From positions 45,137-109,136 of IMG/VR virus record IMGVR_UViG_3300020193_000005: a stretch of DNA of 64,000 nt. One strand, written 5' to 3'. A program made the position numbers and the translations under genes. Positions 49,817 through 64,000 of this stretch are shown piece after piece. How positions within the stretch are numbered: the first letter of the stretch is position 1; each line of letters begins with the position of its first letter. The notes beneath the pieces are model-generated. The model ran no database searches, was not told the DNA's origin, and saw nothing but the letters and a program-made list of their open reading frames with translations. This DNA comes from a virus.

Positions 49817-49822
49817 TAGAAT
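49817..49822 (+). promoter_or_regulatory. -10 box TAGAAT of the leaderless thioredoxin gene
   Basis: TAGAAT sits six bases before the ATG at 49829, so transcription would start at or next to the start codon. There is no Shine-Dalgarno sequence and no convincing -35 box. Confidence 0.5.
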
Positions 49823-49828
49823 TTAGAC

Positions 49829-50179: not shown

Positions 50180-50197
50180 TCGGCTCACTGAGCCGAC
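50179..50197. terminator. Palindromic hairpin between convergent genes
   Basis: GTCGGCT, loop CACTG, AGCCGAC overlaps the stop codons of the thioredoxin gene and of the opposing DUF1599-type gene. No T-run follows, so it may be a weak bidirectional terminator or simply a stable 3' end. Confidence 0.45.
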
Positions 50198-52423: not shown

Positions 52424-52890
52424 AAGGGATCTTGCCCTTCGAACGCCTCCTGTGATCCGCCGCCGACCCGCGCCGTCTGCTTGGTTTGCGGCTTCGAACG
52501 AGACTGTTCCTTGCCGTTGCCATCGCCCTGCTGGCGTTGCTTACGCTCGAACTTGTCTATCGATCGCACGGAGATACCGATTTCGTCGGCGAGCACGTGC
52601 ACGGCCGAACGCTTCTTGCCGGTCTCCTTGTCGTCCCAGCTCTCCTGCTCGAGGCGACCGCTCACGGTGACGCGCACTCCCTTGACGAGCACGGCGGCGC
52701 CGTCCTCGGCCAGGTTCCTCCAGGCGACCACGTTGAAGAACGAGGTTTTCTCCTGCTTTTCTCCCTTGGAGTCCGTCCAATAGTGATTTACGGCCACCGA
52801 AAAGGTGAGCTTGGCGGAGCCGGAATCGAAGTATTTCACTTCGGGATCCCCCGTGAGATTGCCGATGATTGTTACTGGCGCTAGTGACAT
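52420..52890 (-). CDS. ssb: Single-stranded DNA-binding protein
   Basis: 156 residues from the ATG behind AAGGAGG; a longer frame upstream lacks such a site. The OB fold is clear: VTIIGNLTGDPEVKYF, LTFSVAVNHYW, KTSFFNVVAWRNLAEDGAAV, VKGVRVTVSGRLEQESW and HVLADEIGISV. A Gln/Lys-rich disordered linker leads to the tip EGQDPF, a short version of the acidic C-terminus that recruits partner proteins. It coats single-stranded DNA during replication and repair. It is first in an operon with the methyltransferase and DUF1599-type gene. Confidence 0.92.
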   Translation of the reverse strand: MSLAPVTIIGNLTGDPEVKYFDSGSAKLTFSVAVNHYWTDSKGEKQEKTSFFNVVAWRNLAEDGAAVLVKGVRVTVSGRLEQESWDDKETGKKRSAVHVLADEIGISVRSIDKFERKQRQQGDGNGKEQSRSKPQTKQTARVGGGSQEAFEGQDPF

Positions 52891-52929
52891 GTTAGTATCC
52901 TCCTTGTGTCGGTTGATTTCGCCACTTGC

Positions 52930-52958
52930 AGCATACCACAAGTACTAGGATGTGTCAA
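52930..52958 (-). promoter_or_regulatory. Near-consensus promoter of the ssb operon
   Basis: On the minus strand TTGACA (52958-52953) and TATGCT (52935-52930) are 17 bases apart, the best sigma-70-type promoter in the window. It overlaps the -10 box of the divergent plus-strand gene, so the two promoters probably exclude each other. Confidence 0.8.
52946..52951 (+). promoter_or_regulatory. -10 box TAGGAT of a leaderless gene
   Basis: TAGGAT lies six bases before the ATG at 52958 and inside the divergent ssb promoter. The would-be -35 (CACTTG) is weak. Confidence 0.45.
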
Positions 52959-53224
52959 TGCCAATAGAAAGAACCCCAGAAAACGCAAGAATCATACTCG
53001 TTAGACAGTTGCAGGATGCGCTGTTCGACCTCTCCTTCGATGCCAACGAATCGGACGACAAGAACGAGGAGCTACTCGACAAGCTCGCCGTCGTCGCCGA
53101 CCAATTGGTAGAGCTCACGGGGGCGAAGGTAACTCAAATCGACGAAGACGGAAACGCCTACGTGAAATTCATTTTTTCTCACGTCTGGGACGACGAAAGG
53201 TTCAAGAGTATCTTCCTTTCGTGA
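52958..53224 (+). CDS. Small acidic hypothetical protein (88 aa)
   Basis: The ATG at 52958 is preferred over an in-frame GTG at 52952 because it stands six bases after a -10 box. The product is acidic (FDANESDDKNEELLDKL) with a helical first half and ends VWDDERFKSIFLS. No family recognised. It overlaps the next gene by GTGA. Confidence 0.6.
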   Translation: MPIERTPENARIILVRQLQDALFDLSFDANESDDKNEELLDKLAVVADQLVELTGAKVTQIDEDGNAYVKFIFSHVWDDERFKSIFLS

Positions 53225-53466
53225 TGAAGGACGAGAACAGCCTTGATCCGGCTTTCGTCAAATCGGAATTGGACGAAGCAGAAAAGAAGATCAACAACAT
53301 CGTCTGCGAACATCACTGGTTCGCGTCGGAGTTCGGTCCGTATTCGCCACTACACCCCAACAGCGACGGCGGAAAAGAAGACGAGTTTCTTCACGCCCTC
53401 GGAATGGCTCACGATTGGCTGAGACAGGCGATGGTGTACTACGACGAAATGCACGAAAACGAATAG
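53221..53466 (+). CDS. Small hypothetical protein (81 aa)
   Basis: GTG at 53221 overlapping the previous stop, with an ATG at the next codon. It is acidic and rich in His and aromatic residues (CEHHWFASEFGPYSPLHP; HDWLRQAMVYYDEMHENE). No known family. The stop codon abuts the 3' end of the opposing tmRNA at 53467. Confidence 0.6.
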   Translation: MMKDENSLDPAFVKSELDEAEKKINNIVCEHHWFASEFGPYSPLHPNSDGGKEDEFLHALGMAHDWLRQAMVYYDEMHENE

Positions 53467-53849
53467 TGGAGCTGGGGGGAATCGAACCCCCGTCCGAGCG
53501 GATACCGAGGAAATCGCTACGACCGTTCCCGTTTCGACGCTGACGCTACGTCGCCGACGGGTCGGCTACCCGGTCGCCCGAGTCGCGTCTCGTCTTTCCG
53601 AGATGTCGTCGGGCTTTCGTTCCCCGAGGTCAACGGTCTTTCTCGTCGTCATCCCCGCTTCTGTTGCCGGGCTGCGGTGGATCGGCCCCGTGCGACCTTG
53701 CGGCTCACGAGTGCTCTCCGACGCCTAATGAATTAGGCGGCGAGAGCGAACTGCTTGTTGGCAGTTGTTTGGTTGCCCTGTTTTGCGAGTCTGAGCAACT
53801 CGGGTCGCGCCTTCTCCGGACAGACCGATCGTCGAAACCTGTCAGCCCC
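53467..53849 (-). ncRNA. ssrA: Transfer-messenger RNA (tmRNA)
   Basis: About 383 nt. The 5' end GGGGCTGACAGGTTTCGAC (53849 downward) and the 3' end GGGGGTTCGATTCCCCCCAG followed by CTCCA are the classic tRNA-like halves; GGGGCTG pairs with CAGCTCC. CCA is not encoded. The tag frame lies at 53786-53733: AKQGNQTTANKQFALAA then TAA, with resume codon GCA. It ends in ALAA as usual for proteolysis tags. The stop codon is inside a perfect hairpin (CGCCTAAT, ATTAGGCG). tmRNA frees stalled ribosomes and tags the unfinished peptides. Phage copies are known from some actinobacteriophages. Its own promoter lies inside the preceding gene. Confidence 0.93.
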
Positions 53850-53858
53850 TTGAAATTG

Positions 53859-54059
53859 CTATGTAATCATACCATCGTTTAGTTCCTTCAGCAACTTGAT
53901 CCCGCACTTCTCGGCCAGGTCGGCTCGCTTGTGGCTGTGGTGACAATCCACGACGACGTTTTCGCCGCGCGACAACCTGGCGAAGTAGGGAGGGTTGGAC
54001 GACCAGCTCGGTCTCAAAAGTACCGTCACGACGACGGGTTCTTGATGTTCATCGTTCAT
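53859..54059 (-). CDS. Small hypothetical protein with HSHK motif (66 aa)
   Basis: Start at the ATG behind TGAGGA; a longer frame upstream runs through a hairpin and is unlikely. The sequence has VVVTVLLRPSW, then PYFARLSRGENVVVDCHHSH followed by KRADLAEKCGIKLL. Conserved-looking Cys and His could bind metal. I do not recognise the family. Its end overlaps the tmRNA promoter. Confidence 0.6.
   Translation of the reverse strand: MNDEHQEPVVVTVLLRPSWSSNPPYFARLSRGENVVVDCHHSHKRADLAEKCGIKLLKELNDGMIT
53866..53894 (-). promoter_or_regulatory. Promoter of the tmRNA gene
   Basis: Minus-strand TTGCTG (53894-53889) and TATGAT (53871-53866) are separated by 17 bases and end 17 bases before the mature tmRNA 5' end. 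The promoter overlaps the last codons of the small gene upstream. Confidence 0.65.
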
Positions 54060-54090
54060 GACGTCCTCATTACGTTGATGTAAGATGAAA

Positions 54091-54135
54091 TCGGTCCCCG
54101 AGACCTTGCTTGGGAGGGAGGGATCCGGGGACCGA
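54091..54135 (-). terminator. Long hairpin ahead of the 66-aa gene and tmRNA
   Basis: TCGGTCCCCG (54091-54100) pairs perfectly with CGGGGACCGA (54126-54135) around a 25-base purine-rich loop. On the minus strand it is followed by ATTTCATCTT, so it could end the upstream operon or act as an attenuator in front of the 66-aa gene. Confidence 0.5.
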
Positions 54136-54183
54136 CTCATCCCAGGCGTCGCTAGGGGGAGCCAAACGCGCCAGGAAGGGTAC

Positions 54184-54234
54184 TTAGGCGAACCAAATCG
54201 TCGCCAAGGCGAACAGGAAGATCACCCAGTCCAT
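54184..54234 (-). CDS. 16-residue hydrophobic micropeptide MDWVIFLFALATIWFA
   Basis: The ATG overlaps the stop of the XRE gene (TAATG) and is preceded by AAGGGAA. The peptide is a single membrane-spanning stretch. A sister gene at 61475-61534 encodes MDLMTWFVFLTALGVVWFS in the same TAATG arrangement; both share W-x-x-F-L-x-A-L-x-x-x-W-F. The similarity and identical coupling argue that both are real, although the length is below normal gene-calling limits. Function unknown; a small membrane peptide could act on lysis, exclusion or membrane proteins. Confidence 0.6.
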   Translation of the reverse strand: MDWVIFLFALATIWFA

Positions 54235-54467
54235 TAGATTCCCTTGGTTACGGCGGAGACCTTGATGTTCATCACGGCGCACAGCCTGACGAGGGTGTCC
54301 ATGGACGGAGAGAAATGACCGTTCTCGATGCGGTTGACCGTCTTGCGGTCAATGCCGGCGGCGCCGGCGAGGCCCTCCTGGCTGAAGCCAGACTTCAACC
54401 TGGCGTTCCTTAGTCGTTCGGAGACGATGCTCTCGGCTCGCTCCAGTCTCTTCTTGTCAATTTTCAT
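54234..54467 (-). CDS. XRE-family helix-turn-helix regulator
   Basis: 77 residues from an ATG behind GAGGAGG; the longer frame upstream is out of keeping with the ATGA overlap seen here. The HTH is SGFSQEGLAGAAGIDRKTVNRIENG, given in parts (SGFSQEGLAGAAGI, DRKTVNRIENG), followed by PSMDTLVRLCAVMNIKVS: a typical Cro/CI-type single-domain repressor. It is third in the operon from 55134 and may control that operon or the neighbouring early genes. No oligomerisation domain is present beyond the HTH. Confidence 0.85.
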   Translation of the reverse strand: MKIDKKRLERAESIVSERLRNARLKSGFSQEGLAGAAGIDRKTVNRIENGHFSPSMDTLVRLCAVMNIKVSAVTKGI

Positions 54468-54727
54468 ATCGCGCCTCCTCGTTTGGCGTATTCGTTGATG
54501 GCATCCCCGAACTCTTGTTCGAAGAAGTAACTCCCCCGATGGCAGGAGAGAAATTTTTCGCCCGTTTCCGAGCTTTCGTTGCGGCAGTTCCACACGACGT
54601 AGGGGGTGAAATCGTTCCAGCGCTGAGCCAGCACCACCCATCCGCTCCCGACGGCGGTGCAATGCACCACCGTCGCTCGTTGTTTCTCGAGCGGTAGACC
54701 GACTACCGGCGCAAGCGTGGCGGTCAT
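54464..54727 (-). CDS. Hypothetical protein (87 aa)
   Basis: Linked to both neighbours by overlaps (TAATG upstream, ATGA downstream). The sequence has GWVVLAQRWNDFTPYVVWNC and a C-terminal SYFFEQEFGDAINEYAKRG. This beta-strand then helix layout, with a W-x-D-F-x-P-Y-V-V-W segment, recurs in small phage proteins that I cannot name. No membrane or signal segments. Confidence 0.65.
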   Translation of the reverse strand: MTATLAPVVGLPLEKQRATVVHCTAVGSGWVVLAQRWNDFTPYVVWNCRNESSETGEKFLSCHRGSYFFEQEFGDAINEYAKRGGAI

Positions 54728-55134
54728 TAGGCGTTCACGGCCTTCACGTCGGAAATCATCACCGACACGACCGGGGTCACTTCGGTGGCTTGATCCACCA
54801 CCGCCTGCGAGACGAGATTCATGGATACGGCGCTGGCGACCAGCTTCTGATCCACCTCCTCCACCACGAGCTTCTTCAGCACGGCGGGCTTGACGAGCTT
54901 ACGCAGCTTGTCGAGGATGATTTTGGTACGCACGGTACGGCGGATGTAGACCTTGCGGCTGTCGTCCCCCTGACCTGTGATGACCGACTCGAGACCCTCC
55001 TTGGTGCAGGCCTCGATGAAGTCCTGCTCGGCGATCTTCTTCGCCTTGCTGGCGATGTCGTACGAAGTTTTGGCTTCGGCGAAAGCGATGGCGGCCTGGG
55101 CCGCGCTTGTCGGTTTCTTGCGTTTGTCGTTCAT
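54727..55134 (-). CDS. Hypothetical Lys/Ala-rich protein (135 aa), first gene of its operon
   Basis: ATG behind AAGGAG. The N-terminus is KKPTSAAQAAIAFAEAK and a helical body contains FIEACTKEGLESVITGQGDD, RRTVRTKIILDKLRKLVK and a valine-rich C-terminus. It may be an all-helical DNA-associated protein, but no family is recognised. Promoter TTGCAA-17-TAGCGT lies upstream. Its stop overlaps the next ATG (TAATG). Confidence 0.65.
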   Translation of the reverse strand: MNDKRKKPTSAAQAAIAFAEAKTSYDIASKAKKIAEQDFIEACTKEGLESVITGQGDDSRKVYIRRTVRTKIILDKLRKLVKPAVLKKLVVEEVDQKLVASAVSMNLVSQAVVDQATEVTPVVSVMISDVKAVNA

Positions 55135-55172
55135 GATTGCTCCTTAGTAACTAGATGGATAACTTGTGGGAC

Positions 55173-55201
55173 ACGCTAGCGAGTCATCCTTGGTATTGCA
55201 A
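55173..55201 (-). promoter_or_regulatory. Promoter of the XRE/micropeptide operon
   Basis: Minus-strand GGGG-TTGCAA (55201-55196), 17 bases, TAGCGT (55178-55173). Identical boxes and spacing occur twice at the divergent promoter near the right end. A leader of about 30 bases with AAGGAG follows. Confidence 0.7.
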
Positions 55202-55447
55202 CCCCAAACCGAAGTTTTTTGTAAATACCTACGCAGAAATTGATATGACATGAGTCACGTCACTTTTACCGAACGTTCGTCCGTTTACGTCGTCAGATAT
55301 GGGTGAGACGTCGGGGGCGGCGCCTTTCCCGTCCTCGGCGTCTCGTGAAGCCTTTCACTTGCGTTTATTGCGTTTGGAACCCCGAAACGGTAGTGATCGG
55401 GTAGCCGAAATTGGAGCGTTACCGAGAGACGAGCATCCCCACCGATA
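55202..55447. other. Intergenic region with possible operator palindromes
   Basis: No convincing gene is seen here; a plus-strand frame at 55299-55604 lies across the opposing wHTH gene and is probably chance. Symmetric sites are TGAC-ATGA-G-TCAC-GTCA (55246-55262, one mismatch per half) and CGAACGTTCG (55270-55279, perfect). The latter recalls half-sites of the actinobacterial SOS box but lacks the four-base spacer. A hairpin GTGAA-AGGC-TTCAC lies further on. They may bind the nearby HTH proteins. Confidence 0.4.
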
Positions 55448-55885
55448 TCAGAAAAGGTCTTCCTCTTTCCCGACCCCCAGCATCCTGAGAAGCGCCCCGA
55501 ATCTCCTGATATCGCTCGTCTCGGCGACCTTTTCCGGGACGATCACGAGAATGTTTCGGTTCTTGACTTTTGTCTTTGCTAGCAACCCGGCGGCGACGAG
55601 CTGATCGACCGACTTTCGTATCGCCCCCTCGCTCACCCCCAGGAAGACCGCCAGCGACCTCTGCGTGGATTCCGGAGTCTCGGCGACCGCCACCAGGAGC
55701 CTACCCGCGGCGCTAAGAAGGCTTATCTCGTCGTGTCCCGAGTAATAAAGCAAGCGATGTCTGTCCAGTTGCCTCATCACCTTGTCGGCTATTTCGGCGG
55801 CCCCTTCCTCGCCTCCTACGCTTTCGGCGATCGCCTTCTTCAAAGCGTCGTCTATGGAGTGCTTTCTGTATTCCCTGGGAGCCAC
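55448..55885 (-). CDS. Winged-helix DNA-binding regulator (145 aa)
   Basis: GTG start; TAGGAT lies six bases upstream on the minus strand, so the mRNA may be leaderless. Residues about 60-115 form a MarR-like winged helix (LLVAVAETPESTQRSLAVFL, GVSEGAIRKSVDQLVAAGLL, then a wing KTKVKNRNILVIV). The N-terminus is basic and helical (YRKHSIDDALKKAIAES). It is divergent from the next operon and so a candidate regulator of it. The call is by HTH pattern; the ligand and targets are unknown. Confidence 0.75.
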   Translation of the reverse strand: MAPREYRKHSIDDALKKAIAESVGGEEGAAEIADKVMRQLDRHRLLYYSGHDEISLLSAAGRLLVAVAETPESTQRSLAVFLGVSEGAIRKSVDQLVAAGLLAKTKVKNRNILVIVPEKVAETSDIRRFGALLRMLGVGKEEDLF

Positions 55886-55897
55886 CGCCCTATCCTA

Positions 55898-55925
55898 TTG
55901 CGCGAACCCCTCTCCGTGGTATAAG
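55898..55925 (+). promoter_or_regulatory. Promoter of the plus-strand regulator/phosphoesterase operon
   Basis: TTGCGC (55898-55903), 16 bases, TATAAG (55920-55925), with AGGAGG about 15 bases later and the GTG start at 55947. It faces the divergent wHTH gene, whose -10-like TAGGAT overlaps the -35 region. Confidence 0.6.
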
Positions 55926-55946
55926 GTTGTTCGCCTAGGAGGAGAC

Positions 55947-56276
55947 GTGGCCAAAGACTCAAAAAAGACGCTGAAGATAGACCGGAACATAGATCGACTC
56001 GCCCAAAGGCTCAGAAAAATCAAAACGAAATCCGAAATGGAAAACCAACACATCGTGTGTCCGATGGCGAAGCTTCTTCAAAAACTCGACGACGAAACGG
56101 GTAAATGCCTGTACGACGTGCTCAACGACAACGTGACCACGACCAGCGACATAATACGGGAGATGCGGGTATCGGGAATCAGGGTGGCTCGTCAAACCAT
56201 CTACGACTATAGGGCGAGGGTTTGCTCCTGCGCCCACGAGGACAGGTGCGGATTAGACGAGAAATTCAAACAATAA
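55947..56276 (+). CDS. HTH-type regulator with C-terminal Cys pair (109 aa)
   Basis: GTG behind CTAGGAGGAGAC; a longer frame upstream overlaps the divergent gene and is rejected. The N-terminus is basic and helical. Residues about 60-95 form an HTH-like unit (NVTTTSDIIREMRVSGIRVA then RQTIYDYRARVC). The tail CSCAHEDRC could bind zinc. It may sense and control the early operon. Family not identified; a small terminase-like or ParB-like role cannot be excluded. Confidence 0.65.
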   Translation: MAKDSKKTLKIDRNIDRLAQRLRKIKTKSEMENQHIVCPMAKLLQKLDDETGKCLYDVLNDNVTTTSDIIREMRVSGIRVARQTIYDYRARVCSCAHEDRCGLDEKFKQ

Positions 56277-56294
56277 ATCACATCGGGAGGGCTA

Positions 56295-57512
56295 GTGGAG
56301 ATCAAAAAAACCGACAGCGAGAGACTGTCGGCCGGCGTCAAGAGAATGAAGGAAAAAGCCGAGAACGAAGTCAAATCCAAGAAGGTTCTCAACGCCATAG
56401 AGCAGATGATAAGGGCCAAGGGCATAGACCTCGCCGACATCGGGTCGATCAAAAAGGTATCGATTTATCAGCAGGTAACCAAGGACGCCGAAGGCGACTT
56501 CCAGGTGCACGACCTGCAGGCGATCCAGTTTTCCCCGGCTTGGGAAGAGGGTCCGAAGTGGGAGCTCCCCAAGCCGGGACCCTCGGTGCAAATACAAAAG
56601 TCAACGGTTAAACCAATCGTAAAAACCGGCGGGAAAACGGCGATCATCGTACCCGATATACAAATCGGTTATTTCCGCAACGAGGACGGGGAACTCGTCG
56701 CCACGCACGACGAGAGAGCTATCGCTATAGCGATGGCGATGGTGCGCGATATACAACCGACGCAGATAATTCTCCTCGGCGACAACCTGGATCTCCCGGA
56801 GTTCGGCAAGTACAGGCTCAGTCCCGCTTTCGCCCTCACTACGCAGGCTTCGGTGGACAGGGCTACGACGCTTTGCGCCGAACTAAGACAAGCGGCACCG
56901 AAAGCGAAGATCGTATGGCTCGCCGGCAACCACGAAGAGCGACTAACCAACTACATCCTCGACAACGCAAAGGCGGCGTTCGGCATCACCAAGGGGAACA
57001 CGCCTAAGGCGTGGCCGGACATGTCCGTTCCCTCCTTGTGCAGGATGGAGGAGTATGGCATCAATTTCGAGAGCGGATATCCTGCCGGCTACTATCTCGT
57101 CAATAAGCAGTTGGCGTGCATCCACGGCAACAGGGTTCGTTCCAAGGGTTCCACCGCTCACATCTACCTCAACGAGCAAAAGATGTCGGTCATCTACGGG
57201 CACATTCACAGGATAGAGCTAGCTTACCGAACTCGTCGTGACTGGGACGGGGCTAGGACGATCATGGCGGCGAGCCCCGGCACTCTAGCCCGAATAGACG
57301 GCGCCGTGCCCTCCACCAAGGGCGGGGTGGACGCCTGGGGGCGCCCCAAAACGGTCGTGGAGGACTGGCAACAGGGGGTCGGGCTCGTGACCTACGAGGA
57401 CACCGGCAAGGATTTGTTCACGTACGAGGTGGCGACGATATACGACGGTTGGACCAGGTTCCGTGGAGTGGAGTATGACGCAAGAAAAGTCAAATTTCCC
57501 GTTGTAAAATAG
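56295..57512 (+). CDS. Calcineurin-like metallophosphoesterase
   Basis: 405 residues from a GTG behind GGGAGGG. The phosphoesterase core shows the five signature blocks: VPDIQIGYF (D-x-H/Q), LGDNLDLPEFG (G-D), LAGNHEERL (G-N-H-E), CIHGNR (H) and IYGHIHRIE (G-H-x-H). The first block has Gln instead of the usual His, a variation seen in the family. An N-terminal 110-residue coiled and basic region (KKTDSERLSAGVKRMKEKAE) is extra. It would hydrolyse phosphodiesters or phosphomonoesters with two metal ions, possibly in DNA processing. It follows the HTH gene by 18 bases. Confidence 0.85.
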   Translation: MEIKKTDSERLSAGVKRMKEKAENEVKSKKVLNAIEQMIRAKGIDLADIGSIKKVSIYQQVTKDAEGDFQVHDLQAIQFSPAWEEGPKWELPKPGPSVQIQKSTVKPIVKTGGKTAIIVPDIQIGYFRNEDGELVATHDERAIAIAMAMVRDIQPTQIILLGDNLDLPEFGKYRLSPAFALTTQASVDRATTLCAELRQAAPKAKIVWLAGNHEERLTNYILDNAKAAFGITKGNTPKAWPDMSVPSLCRMEEYGINFESGYPAGYYLVNKQLACIHGNRVRSKGSTAHIYLNEQKMSVIYGHIHRIELAYRTRRDWDGARTIMAASPGTLARIDGAVPSTKGGVDAWGRPKTVVEDWQQGVGLVTYEDTGKDLFTYEVATIYDGWTRFRGVEYDARKVKFPVVK

Positions 57513-57633
57513 CCTTCATGAAAAGGCCCGTACTCGCTCAGGCATCCGTTACGAGACGGCGTGAGTCGCTGAATTCCCTCCATGGTTTGCGGGGCTCGGA
57601 TAAACCCACCCTACGACGGGAAGAAGACCGAGA

Positions 57634-58287
57634 ATGACGACGATAATAGGGGTACAGGGAGAAGGATGGTGCGTCATCGGGTGGGACTCGCGCATCTCCA
57701 ATACCTCCGACGACGGGGACTCCGAGACCCACGTACTGTCGGACAGCCAGAAGAAGGTCGTCCAGAACGGACCCTGGCTCGTCGGAGCGGCGGGAGACCT
57801 GAGGGCGATCAACATCCTCTCCCACAACTTCACCCCGCCCGTCCCCAGACCGACGCTCGTCGGCGCGGCGCTGGATAAGTTCGTCTCCACCGACTTCATA
57901 CCCTCCCTCAGGGAGGTCATGGAAAGATCCGGCTACGCCCCGATCCACAAGGAGTCCCCGGGCAAGTGCGAGTTCGAGAGCGAGCTGATAGCCGCGGTGA
58001 ACGGCAGGATCTACGGCGTGGACGGCGACTACAGCTGGATCAGCGAGTCTTCCGGTCTGTACTCGATCGGTAGCGGATCGCGCTACGCGCTGGGAGCCCT
58101 GACGGCCACCGGATGGGGAAGATCGGTGCTCACCGCCCGCAACTCGGTACTCAAGGCGTTGTCGGTGGCGAGCAAGTTCGATCCGGGGACCGGGGCTCCG
58201 TTCCACGTGTCGGCGCAGTACGCCAAGGAGCGTAATAAAAGTAGCGGCGGTAAAAAAGGCTCTTCGCGAAAAGCCAGAAAAAAATAG
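57634..58287 (+). CDS. Proteasome-beta-like Ntn hydrolase (217 aa)
   Basis: Begins MTTIIGVQGEGWCVIGWDSR, where Met removal would expose Thr2, the usual catalytic nucleophile of proteasome-type hydrolases; WDSR corresponds to the conserved Asp region. GAAGDLRA and GLYSIGSGSRYALGAL match the beta-subunit SGSG loop region. The C-terminus is a Lys/Arg/Ser-rich tail. Such subunits occur in actinobacteriophages, whose hosts carry 20S proteasomes or HslV; the target is unknown. Ribosome site GGGAAGAAG. A 121-base gap upstream shows a short GCCTT/AAGGC hairpin but no clear promoter. Confidence 0.8.
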   Translation: MTTIIGVQGEGWCVIGWDSRISNTSDDGDSETHVLSDSQKKVVQNGPWLVGAAGDLRAINILSHNFTPPVPRPTLVGAALDKFVSTDFIPSLREVMERSGYAPIHKESPGKCEFESELIAAVNGRIYGVDGDYSWISESSGLYSIGSGSRYALGALTATGWGRSVLTARNSVLKALSVASKFDPGTGAPFHVSAQYAKERNKSSGGKKGSSRKARKK

Positions 58288-58318
58288 CCAGATCGTAAGG
58301 TAGCGATTACCCGATAGT

Positions 58319-58342
58319 CCTCCGGTAAGTTGTGCGCGGAGG
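58319..58342 (+). promoter_or_regulatory. Hairpin covering the ribosome-binding site of the second WhiB gene
   Basis: CCTCCG (58319-58324) pairs with CGGAGG (58337-58342), which is the Shine-Dalgarno sequence of the gene starting at 58350. The 12-base loop holds a GTG. Such a stem could lower translation until opened. Confidence 0.45.
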
Positions 58343-58349
58343 GAAAAAC

Positions 58350-58703
58350 ATGGTCAAGCGAGAGGGTAAGCGGCCGACCAAAACCGCGTCCAAGAAACCG
58401 GCGAGCGCGCCGAAGACGCTCGATATGCCAAGATACGAGTGGATGGCGAGGGCCAGGTGCAGGGGGGAAACTGACAAGATGTTTCCCAAGGGGCATAAGG
58501 ATATTAGCTACATTCAGGAGGCTCGCGAGATGTGCGCCAATTGCACCGTTCAACCGCAGTGCCTGGAGTACGCGCTGGAGTTCCCGGCCGCCGACATGCA
58601 CGGCGTGTGGGCGGGATTGACGAGCAGACAACTGGCCGCCGAGCAGAAACGAAGGAAGATCTCCCCGACGAGACCGACGCTCAGCCAGATGTGGGGAGAA
58701 TGA
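58350..58703 (+). CDS. Second WhiB-like regulator
   Basis: 117 residues from the ATG behind GGAGGG; an upstream in-frame GTG at 58332 is within the hairpin. A basic Lys/Pro-rich N-terminal 25 residues precede the WhiB domain: C37 (RARCRGETDKMF), then C62, C65 and C71 in MCANCTVQPQC, followed by HGVWAG and the basic QLAAEQKRRK. The longer N-terminus distinguishes it from the 80-residue copy at 49506. Expected to bind the host sigma factor through an iron-sulfur cluster. It overlaps the next gene by ATGA. Confidence 0.88.
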   Translation: MVKREGKRPTKTASKKPASAPKTLDMPRYEWMARARCRGETDKMFPKGHKDISYIQEAREMCANCTVQPQCLEYALEFPAADMHGVWAGLTSRQLAAEQKRRKISPTRPTLSQMWGE

Positions 58704-58900
58704 ACGACTCGCTCTCCACCCCGAAGCGAGAAAGGAGCGCCGGGGACGACGGCGACGAATACGCCGGTTGGTATCGCTGGGACGAGGCGACGAGGACCTG
58801 GGTGCCGCATCCCGATCCGTCGGTCGCCGCGTCGCTGAGCGAACGGGAGATCGCCGCTCCGCTATACGAACGCAGGAGGGCCGCCGGAATACCCACGTGA
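58700..58900 (+). CDS. Small acidic hypothetical protein (66 aa)
   Basis: ATGA overlap with the WhiB gene. It includes EYAGWYRWDEATRTWVPHP, a W-Y-x-W-D-x-x-x-x-x-W-V pattern as in short beta motifs, and a Glu/Arg-rich end. No family recognised. It is the last gene of this operon before a convergent minus-strand set. Confidence 0.55.
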   Translation: MNDSLSTPKRERSAGDDGDEYAGWYRWDEATRTWVPHPDPSVAASLSEREIAAPLYERRRAAGIPT

Positions 58901-59007
58901 GCGGCCGCGAAGCCGGTGCGAGCCTCGAGCCAGGATTTTGTATTTGTTCGGATCGGCGGGAGAGAGAAAGCGGCCAGCCTAAAGCGGCGAAAAAAAAAAT
59001 TGTAGCC

Positions 59008-59074
59008 ACGCGTGCGCGGACTAATTTATACGAGACTAAAAAAAATAGAACTACGCGTGCGCGTCCCGATTTAT
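59008..59074. repeat. Tandem pair: ACGCGTGCGCG plus ATTTAT, each behind an A-tract
   Basis: ACGCGTGCGCG is at 59008-59018 and 59053-59063, and ATTTAT at 59024-59029 and 59069-59074, both offset by 45 bases. Each unit follows eight to ten A residues. On the minus strand the units read as GC-rich core then T-tract, like tandem weak terminators after the gene ending at 59071. The rest of 58901-59070 holds no gene. Confidence 0.5.
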
Positions 59075-59412
59075 CCGACTCTGATTCCGCACTCGTCGCA
59101 GAACTCGTATCCGTCCAGACTTACGATCCTCTGATCGCATTTGATTCTCCCGCAGGGTCTTACGAGTTTGTCCCCGGTGGCGTAGGCGGCGAGTACCTCG
59201 GCTATCGTCGGATTGTAACGGCCCTCCGGCGGGGACGGTAGACCGCGGTCGGCCCTCTCGGCTTCCCTGATCGCGTTGGAGACGAAGGCGTTGATCGAGA
59301 CGCCGTCCCGCTCGCATACGGCGAGCATCCTTCCCTTCAGCCAGCCCGGGATCCGCACGCAGATCTGGTGGAGCTCGTCGTCGCTCCTAGGCGGAGTCGG
59401 TCGGTGGGGCAT
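59071..59412 (-). CDS. Ribbon-helix-helix protein with C-terminal zinc-ribbon-like motif (113 aa)
   Basis: N-terminal ELHQICVRIPGWLKGRMLAV followed by ERDGVSINAFVSNAIREAE is a ribbon-helix-helix DNA-binding fold. The C-terminus CGRIKCDQRIV then FCDECGIRVG has two C-x4-C/C-x2-C pairs like a zinc ribbon. The start overlaps the end of the other RHH gene by 26 bases. Likely a dimeric transcription repressor. The two genes resemble each other in the beta-strand (LRVPSWFKNHL vs VRIPGWLKGRM), suggesting duplication. Confidence 0.75.
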   Translation of the reverse strand: MPHRPTPPRSDDELHQICVRIPGWLKGRMLAVCERDGVSINAFVSNAIREAERADRGLPSPPEGRYNPTIAEVLAAYATGDKLVRPCGRIKCDQRIVSLDGYEFCDECGIRVG

Positions 59413-59569
59413 CCCTCAGTACCAGCGTCCTGAGATACTCGGTGATCGACATATCGTATCCCTCCGACACGTCGATGAGATGGTTCTTGAACCAGGACGG
59501 AACTCTCAGAGTGAGGGTACAATCCTCGCCTACGGCCCTCTTCGCCGGTCTTCCTCCGCGTCTATTCAC
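59387..59569 (-). CDS. Ribbon-helix-helix protein (60 aa)
   Basis: GTG start. CTLTLRVPSWFKNHLIDV, then GYDMSITEYLRTLVL match an Arc/CopG-type fold. The N-terminus is basic (NRRGGRPAKRA). It overlaps the larger RHH gene and is 17 bases after the replication-type gene. A small repressor of this operon is plausible. Confidence 0.7.
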   Translation of the reverse strand: MNRRGGRPAKRAVGEDCTLTLRVPSWFKNHLIDVSEGYDMSITEYLRTLVLRDAPPTDSA

Positions 59570-59585
59570 GCGGAAAACGCTACTA

Positions 59586-60062
59586 CTATTCCCTTTCCTT
59601 ACCGGGAAGACCGTAGTTCTCGGTCTCCCACGCGGCGAGATTCTCGCGATAGGCGCGGAAGAAGAGCTCGCGATCGCCGTTGGTGTGCAGTTCCAGGGCG
59701 TTGCGACCGCCCAGCGCGGCGAGCGTTTCGGCCACTACGGGGTGCATCTTCTCGGAGGATCCGACCCCCGAGTGGGAAGCCTCGGATATCCTGCGGAGCT
59801 GAGCCCACGCCTCCCATTCCTTCGGCGGTCTCCCCGGTCTGGTCGATAGCGCCAGTCTGCGGACGGTGCCGGGTCTGGGGAGCCACGAGGCGTCCTGCGC
59901 CACGAGGGTTCTATAGGCGTGGCGAGCCTCCTCCACGGATACGTCGGACAAGAAACGACTCCAGGTGGAGAGTAACTCGTCCCAGTCGGATCCTTTGGGG
60001 ATGCGTTCGTTCCAGGCGTTGTAGAAAGCCACGACTACTTTGCCGGCCGAGTCGGAGTCCAC
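59586..60062 (-). CDS. Putative replication accessory / helicase-loader-like protein (158 aa)
   Basis: GTG start overlapping the upstream stop (TAGTG). The helical sequence includes AFYNAWNERIP, WDELLSTWSRFLSDVSVEEA, RTLVAQDASWLPRPGTVRRL and a Trp-rich C-terminus. The spacing of a helical bundle followed by W-L-P-R-P-G-x-V-R-x-L recalls the P-P-T-x-x-E-I-R segment of phage helicase loaders. The match is loose, so the call rests mostly on the neighbour, which resembles a replication-protein domain. Confidence 0.45.
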   Translation of the reverse strand: MDSDSAGKVVVAFYNAWNERIPKGSDWDELLSTWSRFLSDVSVEEARHAYRTLVAQDASWLPRPGTVRRLALSTRPGRPPKEWEAWAQLRRISEASHSGVGSSEKMHPVVAETLAALGGRNALELHTNGDRELFFRAYRENLAAWETENYGLPGKERE

Positions 60063-60478
60063 TAGAAGTCGGCTCCCTTCGGTCGGGATCGGTTCTCTCT
60101 CGCTATTTCGCAGAACCGCTCTATTTTGGCCGCGTCGCGCAGTATGAGCTCCACGTCGTCGTACTTACGCCGGCGATCGTTGTCGCCCTGGTGGAACGGA
60201 CTGAGCTTGCAACCCTCTATCGCTTCTACGCACGCATCGACTCCGTAAGTGACCACGGCCCACGAGATTCTTTCCCGGCGCTCCTCGGTGAGTTTGACCC
60301 TGTTCTCCTGACCGGGGCGATGTATCCGGACCCACTCGTTCCACACGAAATCGACGTCGTCCCGATTCGCCAGTTCGATCTTCTTCCTGCGCCGCGCGTA
60401 CTTCCGTTGCGCGTGGTTTCTCCTAGGTTTCGGTTCCGTCACGAACAATACCCCCTGCACGATTCGATCATACGCCAT
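60062..60478 (-). CDS. Putative replication-protein C-terminal-type domain (138 aa)
   Basis: A basic N-terminus (RRNHAQRKYARRRKK) precedes VDFVWNEWVRIHRPGQ, KLTEERRERISWAVVTYG, ACVEAIEGCKLSPFHQGDN and YDDVELILRDAAKIERFCE. The order W-x-x-W...L-T-x-x-R-x-x-x-I...A-I-x-G...H-x-G-x-N...L-I-L-R-D matches a domain I know from the C-termini of phage replication initiators. Here it stands alone with a basic arm. It is first in its operon and borders the hairpin-rich region 60479-61250. Confidence 0.6.
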   Translation of the reverse strand: MAYDRIVQGVLFVTEPKPRRNHAQRKYARRRKKIELANRDDVDFVWNEWVRIHRPGQENRVKLTEERRERISWAVVTYGVDACVEAIEGCKLSPFHQGDNDRRRKYDDVELILRDAAKIERFCEIARENRSRPKGADF

Positions 60479-60908
60479 CGGACGCGATAAATCAAGGGGA
60501 ATCGGCCGAATTAAGCACGGACCCCCACTCGTCTCTTACGAACGCCTCGTACGAACCCCTTGTAGAGAATACGTACCATAAGTTGTATTTGCTAAACGTC
60601 TCTCGTAATCGAGACCCTTAGCGTCGTATCGGAACGACGGTTCGTCGTTCCAGTACGACAACTTACCGACCCGATCGCTTCGTCGTCCACGAAGACGGGT
60701 AGGCATCACGACTAACTTTTTACGAAGTTTTCTAGCGCGAAACCCGTACGCACGTCAAGTATCCTTGTCCGCCCTACTCCGGGGGTTCCGGTGCCGGCAC
60801 CCGCCGATGGTCTACAATTTTCCCGCTCCGTATTGACCCCCCTTGTCGGAGCGGATTGGGTCGTCACCCGGGTCTTTTCTCCTTTCTTCCCGGGTGGCGA
60901 CTCGCCGT

Positions 60909-60978
60909 TCATCCGCCACCGTCGTCCCCTTTAGCCGAGGGCTCTCGATCGATCTGGTCATCCGCCACCGTCGTCCCC
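60909..60978. repeat. 21-base direct repeat pair
   Basis: Two identical copies, 60909-60929 and 60958-60978, each beginning TCATCCGCCACC and ending GTCGTCCCC, 49 bases apart. Iteron-like in spacing, though only two copies are present. Confidence 0.75.
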
Positions 60979-61203
60979 GATTGCCAAACGACCCCGGCGC
61001 GCGCTCCGAAGTCCAAGAGTAAGTGAAATCGCTCACGAGTCCAGGGGTCAACCGAGGCTTGGACTTCCGACCTTTTTCGGTAGTCGAGGCTTCTGGACTA
61101 CGGAGCGAAAGTCCGCGCGGGAGCGCCACGGGAGGCGAAAAGGTAGATCGAAGAGCGCCTTAAAACGAAAAAAGCGCGCCGAACCTATCCTTCCTTTCGA
61201 AAA

Positions 61204-61232
61204 GAGTCGACTCGACGCGCGTCAATCGCGCG
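61204..61232 (-). terminator. Possible terminator of the right-hand minus-strand operon
   Basis: On the minus strand CGCGCG-ATTGA-CGCGCG (61232-61216) is followed by the palindrome GAGTCGACTC and TTTTCG. The stem is stable and the T-run short, so termination efficiency is uncertain. Confidence 0.5.
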
Positions 61233-61250
61233 AAAGCGTTCGAAGAGCGG

Positions 61251-61487
61251 TTAGCCGACTTTTACGGCCACCTTGTGGAATTCCACCCACTGTTCGCCGT
61301 GACCGTTGAGCGGGCCGATCTTGACGTCGAGCCTGCCGTACCTGAATCTCTCGTCGAGAATGGTCACCGGGAATCCCATGTCGTCCACCACGTAGACGCC
61401 TTTGCGTCCGACCAACGATCGGTGGTTGCGCTTCTCCTTGGCGGTGTAGGTCTTGGGTTTTTTGATGAGTTTGTTCAGCTGAACCAT
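61251..61487 (-). CDS. Small basic hypothetical protein (78 aa)
   Basis: The ATG at 61487 lies inside the micropeptide gene; the upstream in-frame ATG is less likely. Sequence MVQLNKLIKKPKTYTAKEKR, then GRKGVYVVDDMGFPVTILDE and RYGRLDVKIGPLNGHG suggests a small beta-barrel (SH3-like) that could bind nucleic acid. No family assigned. Last gene of its operon. Confidence 0.6.
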   Translation of the reverse strand: MVQLNKLIKKPKTYTAKEKRNHRSLVGRKGVYVVDDMGFPVTILDERFRYGRLDVKIGPLNGHGEQWVEFHKVAVKVG

Positions 61488-61534
61488 ACGACCCCCAGTG
61501 CGGTCAGGAAAACGAACCACGTCATCAAGTCCAT
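61475..61534 (-). CDS. 19-residue hydrophobic micropeptide MDLMTWFVFLTALGVVWFS
   Basis: The ATG overlaps the upstream stop (TAATG), with AGGAAGAGG in front. It shares W-x-x-F-L-x-A-L-x-x-x-W-F with the 16-residue peptide at 54184-54234 in another operon. A single short membrane span; its end overlaps the start of the next gene. Function unknown. Confidence 0.6.
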   Translation of the reverse strand: MDLMTWFVFLTALGVVWFS

Positions 61535-61878
61535 TACGACCTCTTCCTGCGGTTGATCTTGCGGGTCCGCTTGATCATCGTCTTGACGTCGGCCACCGAG
61601 AATTCGGCGCGCTTCTCGCCGTCCGGGCCGGCTGGATCCTCCACCTGTACGTGGATGGCGCAGACGAGCCTGTCGATTTCCTCCTGGGTGAGGCGGCGGT
61701 CGGCCGAGAACGACACCGTAGCCAGGTAGGTGTTGTACGGCTTGTTCTTCACGATCGGTTGGCTGTTGTTCTGCAACGACCTCATGATCTGGGCGAAGTC
61801 GTTCTCCAACCTCGCGACCTTGCGCACGAGCTTCTCGGTCTTGTTGGTCTTCTTCTTTTTCTTCTTGTTTACGGGCAT
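61534..61878 (-). CDS. Lysine-rich hypothetical protein (114 aa)
   Basis: ATG behind AAGGAGG. The N-terminus is PVNKKKKKKTNKTEKL, then a helix KVARLENDFAQIMRSLQ, a beta region with LATVSFSADRRLTQEEIDRL and a basic end KRTRKINRRKRS. Both ends are basic, so nucleic-acid or capsid-interior binding is possible. No family recognised. Confidence 0.65.
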   Translation of the reverse strand: MPVNKKKKKKTNKTEKLVRKVARLENDFAQIMRSLQNNSQPIVKNKPYNTYLATVSFSADRRLTQEEIDRLVCAIHVQVEDPAGPDGEKRAEFSVADVKTMIKRTRKINRRKRS

Positions 61879-61899
61879 GATTCCTCCTTGGCTTTGAAG

Positions 61900-61959
61900 C
61901 TATCCGTTTTCTTGTCGTCTTGCAACGTCCAACGGAGTGTCATCCGACACCGTGCTCAT
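61900..61959 (-). CDS. Possible 19-residue peptide MSTVSDDTPLDVARRQENG
   Basis: An ATG overlaps the stop of the preceding gene (ATGA). The peptide is hydrophilic. Such coupling makes expression possible, but at this length chance cannot be excluded. Confidence 0.3.
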   Translation of the reverse strand: MSTVSDDTPLDVARRQENG

Positions 61960-62351
61960 ATCGTCTCTCCGTCCTCGATCAAGTAGGTTTTGGCGAACAC
62001 GCCCGAGCCGTCTTCGGAGACGATCCATCCGAGGATTTTCGTCCTGCCGCCGACGTACAGTTTCAGCGAGTTGCGGGCGTACCTCCTGCCCTTGTGCGTG
62101 ATCCCGGAATCCTCGGTCTCCTCGTACACCGTCCAAACCGCGCCTCGGCGACCTTGCAGCCCCTTACTCGCGTCGATCCTTTCCAGGGTCCGATGGGCTT
62201 CCAAGGTTTTTTGGGTCGGGAGTCCGTCCGCTTCGGCGAGATACGGAGTCATCGGGCTCGTCTTGCCGTACTCGATCCGTAGATCGGAGAGCGTCCCCAT
62301 TCCGTCCATGTGATGCCGGAGGAACTTTTCGAGCTCGGTTTCCGTCCTCAC
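61956..62351 (-). CDS. Hypothetical protein (131 aa)
   Basis: GTG start overlapping the previous stop (GTGA). Features are an N-terminal helix (ETELEKFLRHHMDGM), a basic middle KGLQGRRGAVWTVYEETEDS and beta strands (LKLYVGGRTKILGWIV). No family assigned. Part of the tightly coupled right-hand operon. Confidence 0.6.
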   Translation of the reverse strand: MRTETELEKFLRHHMDGMGTLSDLRIEYGKTSPMTPYLAEADGLPTQKTLEAHRTLERIDASKGLQGRRGAVWTVYEETEDSGITHKGRRYARNSLKLYVGGRTKILGWIVSEDGSGVFAKTYLIEDGETI

Positions 62352-62602
62352 TTCCTCCTCCCGCGCTTCCTCTTCGTCGAGAGCATGCGGCGCAGGCGTC
62401 GGCCCAGGTCGGCGTCCCGATCGGCGACCTTACCCTTCTTGGGGACGCGGAGCCATCCGTCCTCGCCCATGACCCCGTCGTGGTAGATCGACTCGACCTC
62501 GTAGAGGGGTCGGTCGTCGAAGCGGATCATGAGGGTCTCGTCGTCCAGGACGAAGCCGTCCCGCTCGGTCCACTTGACGACGAAGTAGTGCTCGACGGTC
62601 AT
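62348..62602 (-). CDS. Hypothetical protein (84 aa)
   Basis: Start at the ATG overlapping the upstream stop (ATGA). MTVEHYFVVKWTERDGFVLD, then LMIRFDDRPLYEVESIY suggests alternating beta strands; the C-terminus is basic (RRLRRMLSTKRKRGRRK). A longer frame upstream is a shadow of the next gene. Confidence 0.6.
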   Translation of the reverse strand: MTVEHYFVVKWTERDGFVLDDETLMIRFDDRPLYEVESIYHDGVMGEDGWLRVPKKGKVADRDADLGRRLRRMLSTKRKRGRRK

Positions 62603-63168
62603 TGCGAGTCCTCCTCGGGGATGCCCCACGACGCGACTTCTTTCAGCTTGCCTTTCTTGCCCTCGTAGACGACGCCCCAGCCCTGCTCTTCCTCGTTGTA
62701 AAACTCGAACCGCAGACTCGGGTGCTGTTCCACCATCGCCTTGAACGCCTTTTTCGCGGGAGCCCAAGCCGTGTTGAACTCGTAGGTGAGCGCGCGATCG
62801 GTGTCTTCGAGGAGTTTGCATTCGCAGGCATCCCACTTCGTGCCCCAGTTGCGAATGTTCCAGTCGTACCAGTTGTCGGAGAACTTGCTGTCGTGTTCCA
62901 TCCGCTCCTCGAAGGTCATTTCGTCGTGCTCGTCGTCCCTCACCTTGTCGTCGAAGTAGGCGTCCTTGTCCTTCGGTTCGACGAAGTTCCAGAACGACAG
63001 CGGTTGCTTCCATTCGACGACGTTGATCGCGTCGGCGTCGTACTCGCCGTTCTCGCCGGAGACTCCGGTGTGGCGGGTCGTGTACGATTTGGCGGCTTTC
63101 TTCCGGAAGCGATCGATCGATCGCTTGTCGCCCTTGACGATCATTGAGGTGTGGACCCAGTTCGGCAT
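62599..63168 (-). CDS. Api92-like / DUF1281 family protein (189 aa)
   Basis: Starts MPNWVHTSMIVKGDKRSID, the characteristic M-P-N-W...G beginning of Api92-like (YubB ferredoxin-like) proteins. NWYDWNIRNWGTKWDACE is the second family signature, and FNTAWAPAKKAFKAM the third. These proteins are common on phages and plasmids with no known activity. The ATG overlaps the previous stop (TAATG), excluding the longer upstream frame. Confidence 0.85.
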   Translation of the reverse strand: MPNWVHTSMIVKGDKRSIDRFRKKAAKSYTTRHTGVSGENGEYDADAINVVEWKQPLSFWNFVEPKDKDAYFDDKVRDDEHDEMTFEERMEHDSKFSDNWYDWNIRNWGTKWDACECKLLEDTDRALTYEFNTAWAPAKKAFKAMVEQHPSLRFEFYNEEEQGWGVVYEGKKGKLKEVASWGIPEEDSQ

Positions 63169-63536
63169 TAGAAGACCACCTTGATGCAATTATTCGGGTT
63201 ACCGTCCCACTCCACGTTCAGACCGTGGTCGGCGAGGATGCCCGCGCAGGCGGCGATCTCGTCGGGGAACTTCGACGAGTTGTGGTTGAGGTAGATGGCC
63301 GAGTGGCTCTTGACGTTGTCGTCCAGGTCGTATCTGAGAGCGTTGCCCTGGCCGTTGTAGAACCACACGACAGGCACGTCGGCCCAAGGCTTGGTTCCGA
63401 CCTGGGTCATCTCGTACCAGATGCACGATCGGCAGCATCCGGGAACCCCGAGAATCGCCTTGAATCCGTTCTTGCGCATTTCCTTGAAGGCGCCGTGCAA
63501 CATGGCCTGGTCGCTCTTTTTCGCGATCGTTTTCAT
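63168..63536 (-). CDS. Hypothetical protein with GCCRSC motif (122 aa)
   Basis: ATG overlapping the previous stop (ATGA). Sequence includes MKTIAKKSDQAMLHGAFKEM, LGVPGCCRSCIWYEMTQVG, VVWFYNGQGNALRYDLDDN and AIYLNHNS. The layout resembles small phage proteins around DUF6891-type folds, but I cannot assign a family securely. C-C-x-x-C could bind metal. Confidence 0.6.
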   Translation of the reverse strand: MKTIAKKSDQAMLHGAFKEMRKNGFKAILGVPGCCRSCIWYEMTQVGTKPWADVPVVWFYNGQGNALRYDLDDNVKSHSAIYLNHNSSKFPDEIAACAGILADHGLNVEWDGNPNNCIKVVF

Positions 63537-63775
63537 GACGCGAACGTCGCTTTTCGGATTTGCGCGAGGTCGGCGTAGACCACGACCGTGCGGTAGTCCG
63601 TCCAACTCGCGGCCGTGGCGAACTGCACCGCGCCTTCGGCGAGCGAGGTGACCTCGCAGTCCTCGTAGACGGCGGCGTCCGTCTGGATTTCGACGAGGTG
63701 GTCGTTGTCGCGCGCGTATCGCAGGACCTCGTAGGGCGTCATGTTGGGCCACAGGTATCGGTGCGGGTTTTCCAT
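63533..63775 (-). CDS. Small hypothetical protein (80 aa), first gene of the right-hand operon
   Basis: The ATG at 63775 is seven bases after TAGCGT of the minus-strand promoter, so the mRNA is probably leaderless; a longer frame crosses the promoter and is rejected. Sequence MENPHRYLWPNMTPYEVLRY, then VYEDCEVTSLAEGAVQFATA suggests a small alpha/beta protein. No family recognised. Confidence 0.6.
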   Translation of the reverse strand: MENPHRYLWPNMTPYEVLRYARDNDHLVEIQTDAAVYEDCEVTSLAEGAVQFATAASWTDYRTVVVYADLAQIRKATFAS

Positions 63776-63782
63776 GGGCGTC

Positions 63783-63811
63783 ACGCTACGGCGCGCACGG
63801 GCACCTTGCAA
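63783..63811 (-). promoter_or_regulatory. Minus-strand promoter of the right-hand operon
   Basis: GGG-TTGCAA (63811-63806), 17 bases, TAGCGT (63788-63783). It is the mirror partner of the plus-strand promoter at 63847-63875. The -35 box lies within an operator-like CTTGCGGGTTGCAA. Confidence 0.75.
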
Positions 63812-63838
63812 CCCGCAAGGGGGTGACTTGTGCCACTT

Positions 63839-63860
63839 CTTGCGGGTTGCAACCCGCAAG
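63839..63860. promoter_or_regulatory. Perfect 22-base operator palindrome
   Basis: CTTGCGGGTTG followed by its exact reverse complement, centred on TTGCAA, the -35 box of the plus-strand promoter. A shorter copy (CTTGCGGGTTGCAA on the minus strand) overlaps the opposite -35 box at 63806-63819. A dimeric repressor bound here would shut both directions. Confidence 0.7.
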
Positions 63861-63875
63861 GATCGGCGGTAGCGT
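63847..63875 (+). promoter_or_regulatory. Plus-strand promoter of the last gene
   Basis: GGG-TTGCAA (63847-63852), 17 bases, TAGCGT (63870-63875), seven bases before the ATG at 63883. Same boxes and start distance as the opposing promoter. Confidence 0.75.
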
Positions 63876-63882
63876 TTGGGGC

Positions 63883-64000
63883 ATGGAAAAGGAAACGAAC
63901 ACGCTCACCGACGAGCAACGATGGCATTTGGACGAACTCACCCAGGAGTTGGAGCGGGCGATCCGCTACTACCGGGCGATCCTGGACGCGATCAGCGGGG
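63883..64000 (+). CDS. Small helical protein, cut by the window end
   Basis: Reads MEKETNTLTDEQRWHLDELT then ELERAIRYYRAILDAISG and continues past the edge. It is an amphipathic helical, acidic beginning with no recognisable fold yet. It is driven by the TTGCAA/TAGCGT promoter through a probable leaderless mRNA and shares its operator with the opposing operon; a regulator is possible but unproven. Confidence 0.5.
   Translation, partial: MEKETNTLTDEQRWHLDELTQELERAIRYYRAILDAISG

What the first reader, a model, noticed from the sequence alone, without database searches (positions are those of the whole stretch)
54184..61534. Two sister membrane micropeptides (16 and 19 residues) in separate operons
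MDWVIFLFALATIWFA (54184-54234) and MDLMTWFVFLTALGVVWFS (61475-61534) share W-x-x-F-L-x-A-L-x-x-x-W-F. Both start by TAATG overlap with the gene before and have a purine-rich ribosome site. Their resemblance makes chance unlikely; such small genes are missed by annotation software.
Basis: seen in the sequence. Interest (0 to 1): 0.78.

Follow-up and report, generated by a model that had tools for sequence, protein, structure and literature searches.

The report
Paired 16-19-residue phage membrane micropeptides
An uncultured phage, probably of actinobacteria, carries two tiny sister genes for 16- and 19-residue membrane-spanning peptides, and related phages carry their own matching pairs at corresponding places, so these are almost certainly real genes that gene finders miss, although what they do is still unknown.

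Summary
Observation confirmed: both micro-ORFs exist at the stated coordinates, on the minus strand, each starting in a TAATG overlap with the upstream gene's stop. Five further phage lineages in IMG/VR carry 15-21-residue, uncharged-core micropeptides at matching places: (A) after the homolog of gene 54727-55134 or directly after the HTH gene, and (B) beside the homolog of 61251-61487. All but one start by TRATG overlap (one by ATGA). Scans of the held records find two in G000 (window), G014 and G016, three in G005, one in G001 (B-site gene absent from that record). Within each genome the copies resemble each other more than their positional counterparts elsewhere: ..IWFA/..VWFS here, ..FCCVG/..FACVG, ..WLWT/..WLWT, ..WLWS/..WLWS (best of 120 pairings). 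Substitutions are mostly synonymous or conservative. Best explanation: translationally coupled single-pass membrane peptides without a signal peptide that bind a membrane target, probably the host's, both copies tracking the same target. Existence as genes: about 0.9. Mechanism: inferred, about 0.4. No named family fits.

The parts
54184..54234 (-). micropeptide gene A', MDWVIFLFALATIWFA (16 aa), TAATG overlap with the HTH gene
   Evidence: equivalent place in L022 (MEWVALAFVVGLFCCVG) and L096/L104 (MQA[LA]VVLLILWVLFL)
61475..61534 (-). micropeptide gene B, MDLMTWFVFLTALGVVWFS (19 aa), TAATG overlap with the gene before
   Evidence: equivalent place beside the 61251-61487 homolog in L002, L009, L085
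54234..54467 (-). 77-aa Cro/C1-type HTH protein, upstream of A'
   Evidence: PF01381 HTH_3 E=3.9e-14
54464..54727 (-). unknown 87-aa gene of the A' operon
   Evidence: no family
54727..55134 (-). unknown 135-aa gene of the A' operon; in G001, G002, G003-G005 and G006 the A micropeptide follows its homolog
54091..54135 (-). hairpin downstream of A', possible end of the transcript (weak T tract)
   Evidence: fold; one search lists an inner stem at 54093-54105
61534..61878 (-). unknown 114-aa lysine-rich gene upstream of B
61251..61487 (-). unknown 78-aa gene downstream of B; its ATG lies inside the last codons of B
61940..61953 (-). one-mismatch copy of the repeated element ACGGTGGCGGATGA ahead of the B operon, possible regulatory site

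Best explanation
These are two real, paralogous genes for ultra-short single-pass membrane peptides. Each is translated by coupling to the gene before it (the ribosome ends at TAA/TGA and restarts on the overlapping ATG). The product has no positive charge and no signal-peptide n-region, so it would insert as one short hydrophobic helix. The most likely mode of action is helix-helix packing against a membrane protein, probably a host one, to modulate or block it during infection (for example an entry or exclusion factor, a transporter, or a defence sensor). Both copies keep the same lineage-specific signature because they face the same target or each other. Shown by computation: existence, conservation, membrane-like composition, overlap starts, co-variation of the copies. 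Inferred: translation, insertion, target, phenotype.
For: Equivalent micro-ORFs in related contigs found through neighbouring genes. All 18 listed copies have no D, E, K, R or H after residue 4 and negative summed Wimley-White octanol energies. Low-divergence pairs: 3 synonymous and 0 nonsynonymous codon changes (G018_2/G016_2), 4 and 1 (G018_h/G019_h). In the 18-residue WLW group nonsynonymous changes outnumber synonymous ones, but are more conservative than random mutation at equal divergence in most pairs (P 0.0002-0.059 on BLOSUM score). G006_B and L140 differ by one synonymous base within the ORF while the upstream gene's end carries an indel. Within-genome pairing is the best of all 120 A/B pairings over five lineages. 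Flanking DNA of paralogs is mostly dissimilar, 2-14 of 22 bases upstream and 4-15 of 37 downstream, so similarity is largely confined to the ORF. Precedent: IbsC, 19 aa, keeps membrane toxicity when cut to 15 aa with at least 10 hydrophobic residues (PMC8309996).
Against: No expression data. Peptides of 15-19 residues are short for a full bilayer span. No target, no phenotype, no named homolog. In G018/G019 the 3' half of the ORF lies in a terminator-like stem, so conservation there may be RNA-level. The upstream in-frame stretch is open for 66-208 codons in G014, G003, G005, G006_B and G000_B, and 38 in G000_A, so a frame-shifted tail is not formally excluded there, although it is closed within 2-10 codons in G006_A, G002_A, G001_A, G018_2 and G016_2.
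Confidence: 0.5

Rival explanations
1. Growth-inhibiting hydrophobic peptides working like type I toxins of the Ibs class: both depolarise the host membrane, as host shut-off or a lysis aid.
For: Size and hydrophobicity match IbsC (19 aa; 15 aa with at least 10 hydrophobic residues suffices). More than one copy per genome.
Against: Overlap-coupled to unrelated genes rather than a free-standing mRNA with an antisense RNA; the one sigma-70-like site found in 53400-62700 is at 60467-60495, not opposite either ORF (consensus scan only, actinobacterial promoters not covered). The review names cationic, generally C-terminal residues as a common feature of membrane type I toxins; none here. No lysis family among the neighbours scanned.
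Confidence: 0.2
2. The ORFs are cis-acting: their translation controls the next gene or a terminator, and the peptide is a by-product.
For: In L096 and L104 the ORF ends inside a terminator-like hairpin. B overlaps the start of the next gene in the window. Trp near the C-terminus recalls Trp-sensing leaders.
Against: Neighbouring genes differ between copies and lineages, and no downstream hairpin was seen common to all; amino-acid character and within-genome resemblance are kept at two unrelated places.
Confidence: 0.12
3. Secreted hydrophobic signal peptides, working like SHP/ComS pheromones, read by the adjacent HTH protein.
For: Short hydrophobic peptide directly after an HTH regulator in G000, G014, G016-G019; lineage-specific C-terminal signature shared by both copies.
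Against: Described RRNPP receptors are 250-500 aa with TPRs (PMC10075063); the HTH here is 77 aa, and the one TPR model searched (PF13424) has no match in the held record. No basic N-terminus. B sits beside no HTH gene in the window, G014, G006 or G003.
Confidence: 0.04
4. Membrane-anchoring tails added to the upstream protein by -1 frameshifting at its stop.
For: The ORF is in the -1 frame of the upstream gene, and that frame is open far upstream in several copies.
Against: Closed within 2-10 codons in G006_A, G002_A, G001_A, G018_2, G016_2; the ATG at the overlap is kept in every listed copy; upstream genes at the different places are not seen to be related to one another.
Confidence: 0.03
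5. Chance ORFs.
For: Very short; a similar-looking antisense frame (L094 8789-8848) shows that hydrophobic TRATG frames do arise: it is intact in L104 but altered in L096.
Against: 0.047 expected per window, same places in independent lineages, synonymous-biased change in the low-divergence pairs.
Confidence: 0.03

Closest known systems
Ibs toxins of E. coli (IbsC, 19 aa)
   Same: 15-19 hydrophobic residues, single helix, more than one paralog per genome (paralog number from own knowledge)
   Different: Ibs genes are repressed by antisense Sib RNAs; here overlap-coupled, no antisense promoter seen, no cationic residues
Small bacterial membrane proteins such as YohP (27 aa)
   Same: Single helix; insertion after translation by SRP with SecYEG or YidC is a plausible route (PMC7549839)
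   Different: Shorter, phage-borne, paired; no sequence comparison was run; the Pro-SMP finder default floor of 20 aa (PMC10903887) would drop every listed copy except G014_B (21 aa)
SHP and ComS pheromone precursors with Rgg/ComR
   Same: Short hydrophobic peptide next to an HTH regulator in several lineages
   Different: No TPR receptor found with the one model searched, no basic N-terminus, second copy not beside the regulator
Predicted phage small genes (Fremin et al. 2022, doi 10.1016/j.celrep.2022.110984, known here only from the reference list read)
   Different: The paper is not in the library, so whether this family is among its predictions could not be checked

Membership tests
Small single-pass membrane proteins | One hydrophobic stretch without charges, about 15 residues or more | tested here: inconclusive
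   All 18 listed copies are 15-21 aa with no D, E, K, R or H after residue 4, but the uncharged stretch itself is only 11-17 residues; no topology predictor was run
Small single-pass membrane proteins | Translated and membrane-located | not testable with these tools
   Needs ribosome profiling and fractionation
Type I toxins (Ibs-like) | Short hydrophobic peptide of under 60 aa | tested here: met
Type I toxins (Ibs-like) | Antisense RNA antitoxin overlapping the gene | tested here: inconclusive
   No sigma-70-like site opposite either ORF, but actinobacterial promoters are not covered; no Rfam match besides tmRNA in 44000-64000
Type I toxins (Ibs-like) | Cationic residues, generally C-terminal | tested here: not met
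   No K or R in any listed copy; feature from PMC8309996
RRNPP/SHP pheromone systems | Adjacent 250-500 aa receptor with TPRs | tested here: not met
   The adjacent HTH protein is 77 aa; PF13424 has no match in the held record (the only TPR model searched); feature from PMC10075063
Phage holins | Gene beside an endolysin | tested here: inconclusive
   No lysis family among the neighbours scanned; the lysis cassette itself was not located
Attenuator leader peptides | Short ORF followed by alternative terminator hairpins ahead of a biosynthetic operon | tested here: not met
   B runs straight into the next ORF; A' follows the HTH gene and has one strong predicted hairpin behind it

The most novel reading that the evidence does not exclude
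The two micropeptides are among the shortest co-evolving pairs of membrane helices: they recognise each other and one host membrane protein by a lineage-specific code at their C-terminal ends (IWFA/VWFS, FCCVG/FACVG, WLWT/WLWT, WLWS/WLWS), which changes in both copies together when the phage lineage changes host or target.
Probability: 0.2. Interest if true: 0.75.

Novelty: new variant of a known kind. Interest (0 to 1): 0.52.

Why it matters
Genes of 16-19 codons lie below the size limits of common gene finders (general knowledge; the Pro-SMP finder default is 20 aa). Here a pair predicted by eye from raw sequence is supported by relatives that were fetched without using the peptides. The concerted change of two separated copies gives a natural experiment on what such short membrane helices recognise, and the peptides are short enough to synthesise and test directly.

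Tried and rejected
Named phages: no nucleotide match to 44000-64000 and none to gene 54727-55134; helicase and phosphoesterase relatives listed there are at 28-41% identity and were not followed up for micropeptides. Direct pattern scans of IMG/VR: among the 43 hits of the FxFC....WLW pattern I took only those of the same clade as members; the others were judged by reading their frames, not by further tests. The window-type pattern gave 3 hits, none a short overlap-started ORF. GTDB genomes: 3 hits, two that look unrelated and one a phage fragment in a MAG. No phage integrase (PF00589) in the held record. One neighbour query gave no relative, and L007 gave no member in the scans. In one search the extra query labelled MGYY was translated in a wrong frame, so its matches are disregarded. 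Frameshift-tail, leader-peptide, pheromone and chance readings are ranked as rivals. More distant helicase relatives (54-60% identity, L013-L021 and L023) gave no clear member except a candidate in L023 (MTDLIVLLFLIGFVSML). No structure prediction was attempted: the tool's minimum is 30 residues.

Full report
1. Check of the observation. The window is bases 45137-109136 of a 109136-base IMG/VR virus record. The two ORFs translate exactly as stated, both on the minus strand. Each ATG overlaps the stop of the gene before it in TAATG, with GGAAGAGG or AAGGGA a few bases upstream. The ORF at 54184-54234 follows a 77-aa HTH protein (PF01381) and is followed by a hairpin at about 54091-54135. The ORF at 61475-61534 lies between a 114-aa and a 78-aa gene without family matches and overlaps the start of the latter. 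Plus-strand genes 56295-58703 separate the two, so the operons are distinct. In 150 Markov simulations of the window, overlap-started ORFs of 14-22 codons with such a hydrophobic core average 0.047, and none of 150 had two. Residue shuffles of the two peptides never reached the observed similarity in 5000 trials.

2. What the phage is. Tail sheath and baseplate genes and terminase, portal and major head genes mark a contractile-tailed phage. Two WhiB genes, one by Pfam and one by similarity to it, and relatives of the phosphoesterase in Clavibacter, Microbacterium, Mycobacterium and Streptomyces phages suggest an actinobacterial host; this is inference. No phage integrase was found in the held record.

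3. Relatives. Contigs were fetched by the neighbouring genes, not by the peptides: the 135-aa gene, the helicase and the phosphoesterase. Micro-ORFs of the same kind were then found at two recurring places. Place A: directly after the 135-aa gene in G006 (MWELSFFAFCGFMTWLWT), G002 (MWELSFFTFCGLMVWLWS), G003-G005 (MQPILFFAFCGFIVWLWS) and G001 (MYPVFFIGFCGFVVWLWS); or directly after the HTH gene, as in the window, in G014 (MEWVALAFVVGLFCCVG) and G016-G019 (MQA[LA]VVLLILWVLFL). Place B: just upstream of the 78-aa gene's homolog in G006 (MWTLLFFAFCTFMVWLWT), G003-G005 (MWTLQFFAFCAFVVWLWS) and G014 (MTDVPAFLGLVFVIMLFACVG, ATGA overlap), and in a contig filed under a bacterial MAG (L140). In G017-G019 the HTH-linked copy itself lies between the homologs of the two B-flanking genes. 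A second copy, MAAVVAILIVFCVFS, was seen in G016 and G018, and a third copy, MEILTFFTFCVFVVWLWS, in G005. Scans of the held records, some of them fragments, found two members in G000, G014 and G016, three in G005, one in G001; the 78-aa gene is not found in G001.

4. Evidence that the peptide is what is kept. In G018/G016 the second copy differs at three codons, all synonymous; the HTH-linked copy of G018/G019 at five codons, four synonymous. Taking 0.3 as the expected synonymous share (0.29 and 0.32), seven or more of eight has a probability of about 0.001 (my arithmetic, codons treated as independent). In the 18-residue group replacements are commoner than synonymous changes but mostly more conservative than random mutation at the same divergence. 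G006_B and L140 differ by one synonymous base within the ORF while the end of the gene upstream carries an indel. Paralogs share little flanking DNA. A caution: in G018/G019 the 3' half of the ORF also forms a terminator-like stem, and an antisense hydrophobic frame in L094 and L104 that is altered in L096 shows what a likely chance look-alike is.

5. Concerted change. Normalised A-B similarity within a genome is 0.37-0.78; between the window, G014, G018 and the WLW group it is 0.12-0.34 for A-B and 0.10-0.31 for A-A and B-B. G003 and G006 are close to each other throughout (0.65-0.83). The true pairing scores best of all 120 pairings of five A with five B copies. For G018 the HTH-linked copy was entered as A although it lies between B-flanking genes. 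Gene conversion or fresh duplication limited to about 50 bases, or shared selection by one target, would each give this. I favour shared selection because the copies also differ at synonymous sites and the flanks differ, but the data do not decide.

6. Mechanism. Best supported: overlap-coupled translation, insertion of one uncharged helix, action by helix packing on a membrane protein. Insertion after translation by SRP with SecYEG or YidC is known for the 27-aa YohP (PMC7549839). That 15 residues can act in a membrane is known for IbsC (PMC8309996). Target and phenotype are inference. Rivals are a depolarising toxin, a cis-acting ORF, a signal peptide, a frameshift tail and chance.

7. Known or new. 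Short hydrophobic membrane peptides are a known kind. Ultra-short, paired, overlap-coupled ones with lineage-specific concerted signatures match no family that I tested; membership in type I toxins and in RRNPP pheromone systems each fails a defining feature. Whether published phage small-gene catalogues already hold them could not be checked.

Noticed in passing
window 60909-60922, 60958-60971, 61940-61953 (minus strand); also L002 near 1355, 2396, 3137, 3178; L008 near 134, 176; L009 near 914, 1907, 2598; L085 near 1642, 2647, 3320: A repeated element, ACGGTGGCGGATGA and close variants, ahead of several genes in these phages; 3 matches in the window against 0.28 expected. Possible phage promoter or operator.
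   Followed up: partly
window 53464-53849 (minus strand): Phage-borne tmRNA with tag ANKQFALAA; the DNA of L022 reads as tRNA-like and tmRNA-like sequence at the equivalent place (by eye).
   Followed up: no
window 24339-43739; also 3451-11034, 16849-22971, and L005 7989-19241: Giant open frames of 6466, 2527, 2040 and 3750 codons; not searched for families.
   Followed up: no
window 57634-58287: HslV-family peptidase-like gene (phrog_1040) in a phage.
   Followed up: no
L085 about 2887-2997; L096 15459-15539; L097 3671-3742 and L098 13694-13765: Other small membrane-like ORFs in the related phages: MMEFWIHQ... after the 78-aa gene, MSFLDAWRLLGVFIIFALLLVSFFGG, and MIATGTI[VA].. after whiB2.
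   Followed up: no
L096 16202-16249, L104 7162-7209: The micropeptide's last codons form one arm of a terminator-like hairpin with the stop at the loop.
   Followed up: partly
L140 (VGRJ01000183.1): A contig filed under a Deltaproteobacteria MAG matches six of these phage genes, so it looks like a mis-binned phage fragment.
   Followed up: yes
L023 5965-6018: Candidate distant member MTDLIVLLFLIGFVSML, TAATG overlap, in a phage with 55% helicase identity.
   Followed up: partly
L004 18131-19261: Phosphoadenosine phosphosulfate reductase gene (phrog_2302), an auxiliary metabolic gene.
   Followed up: no
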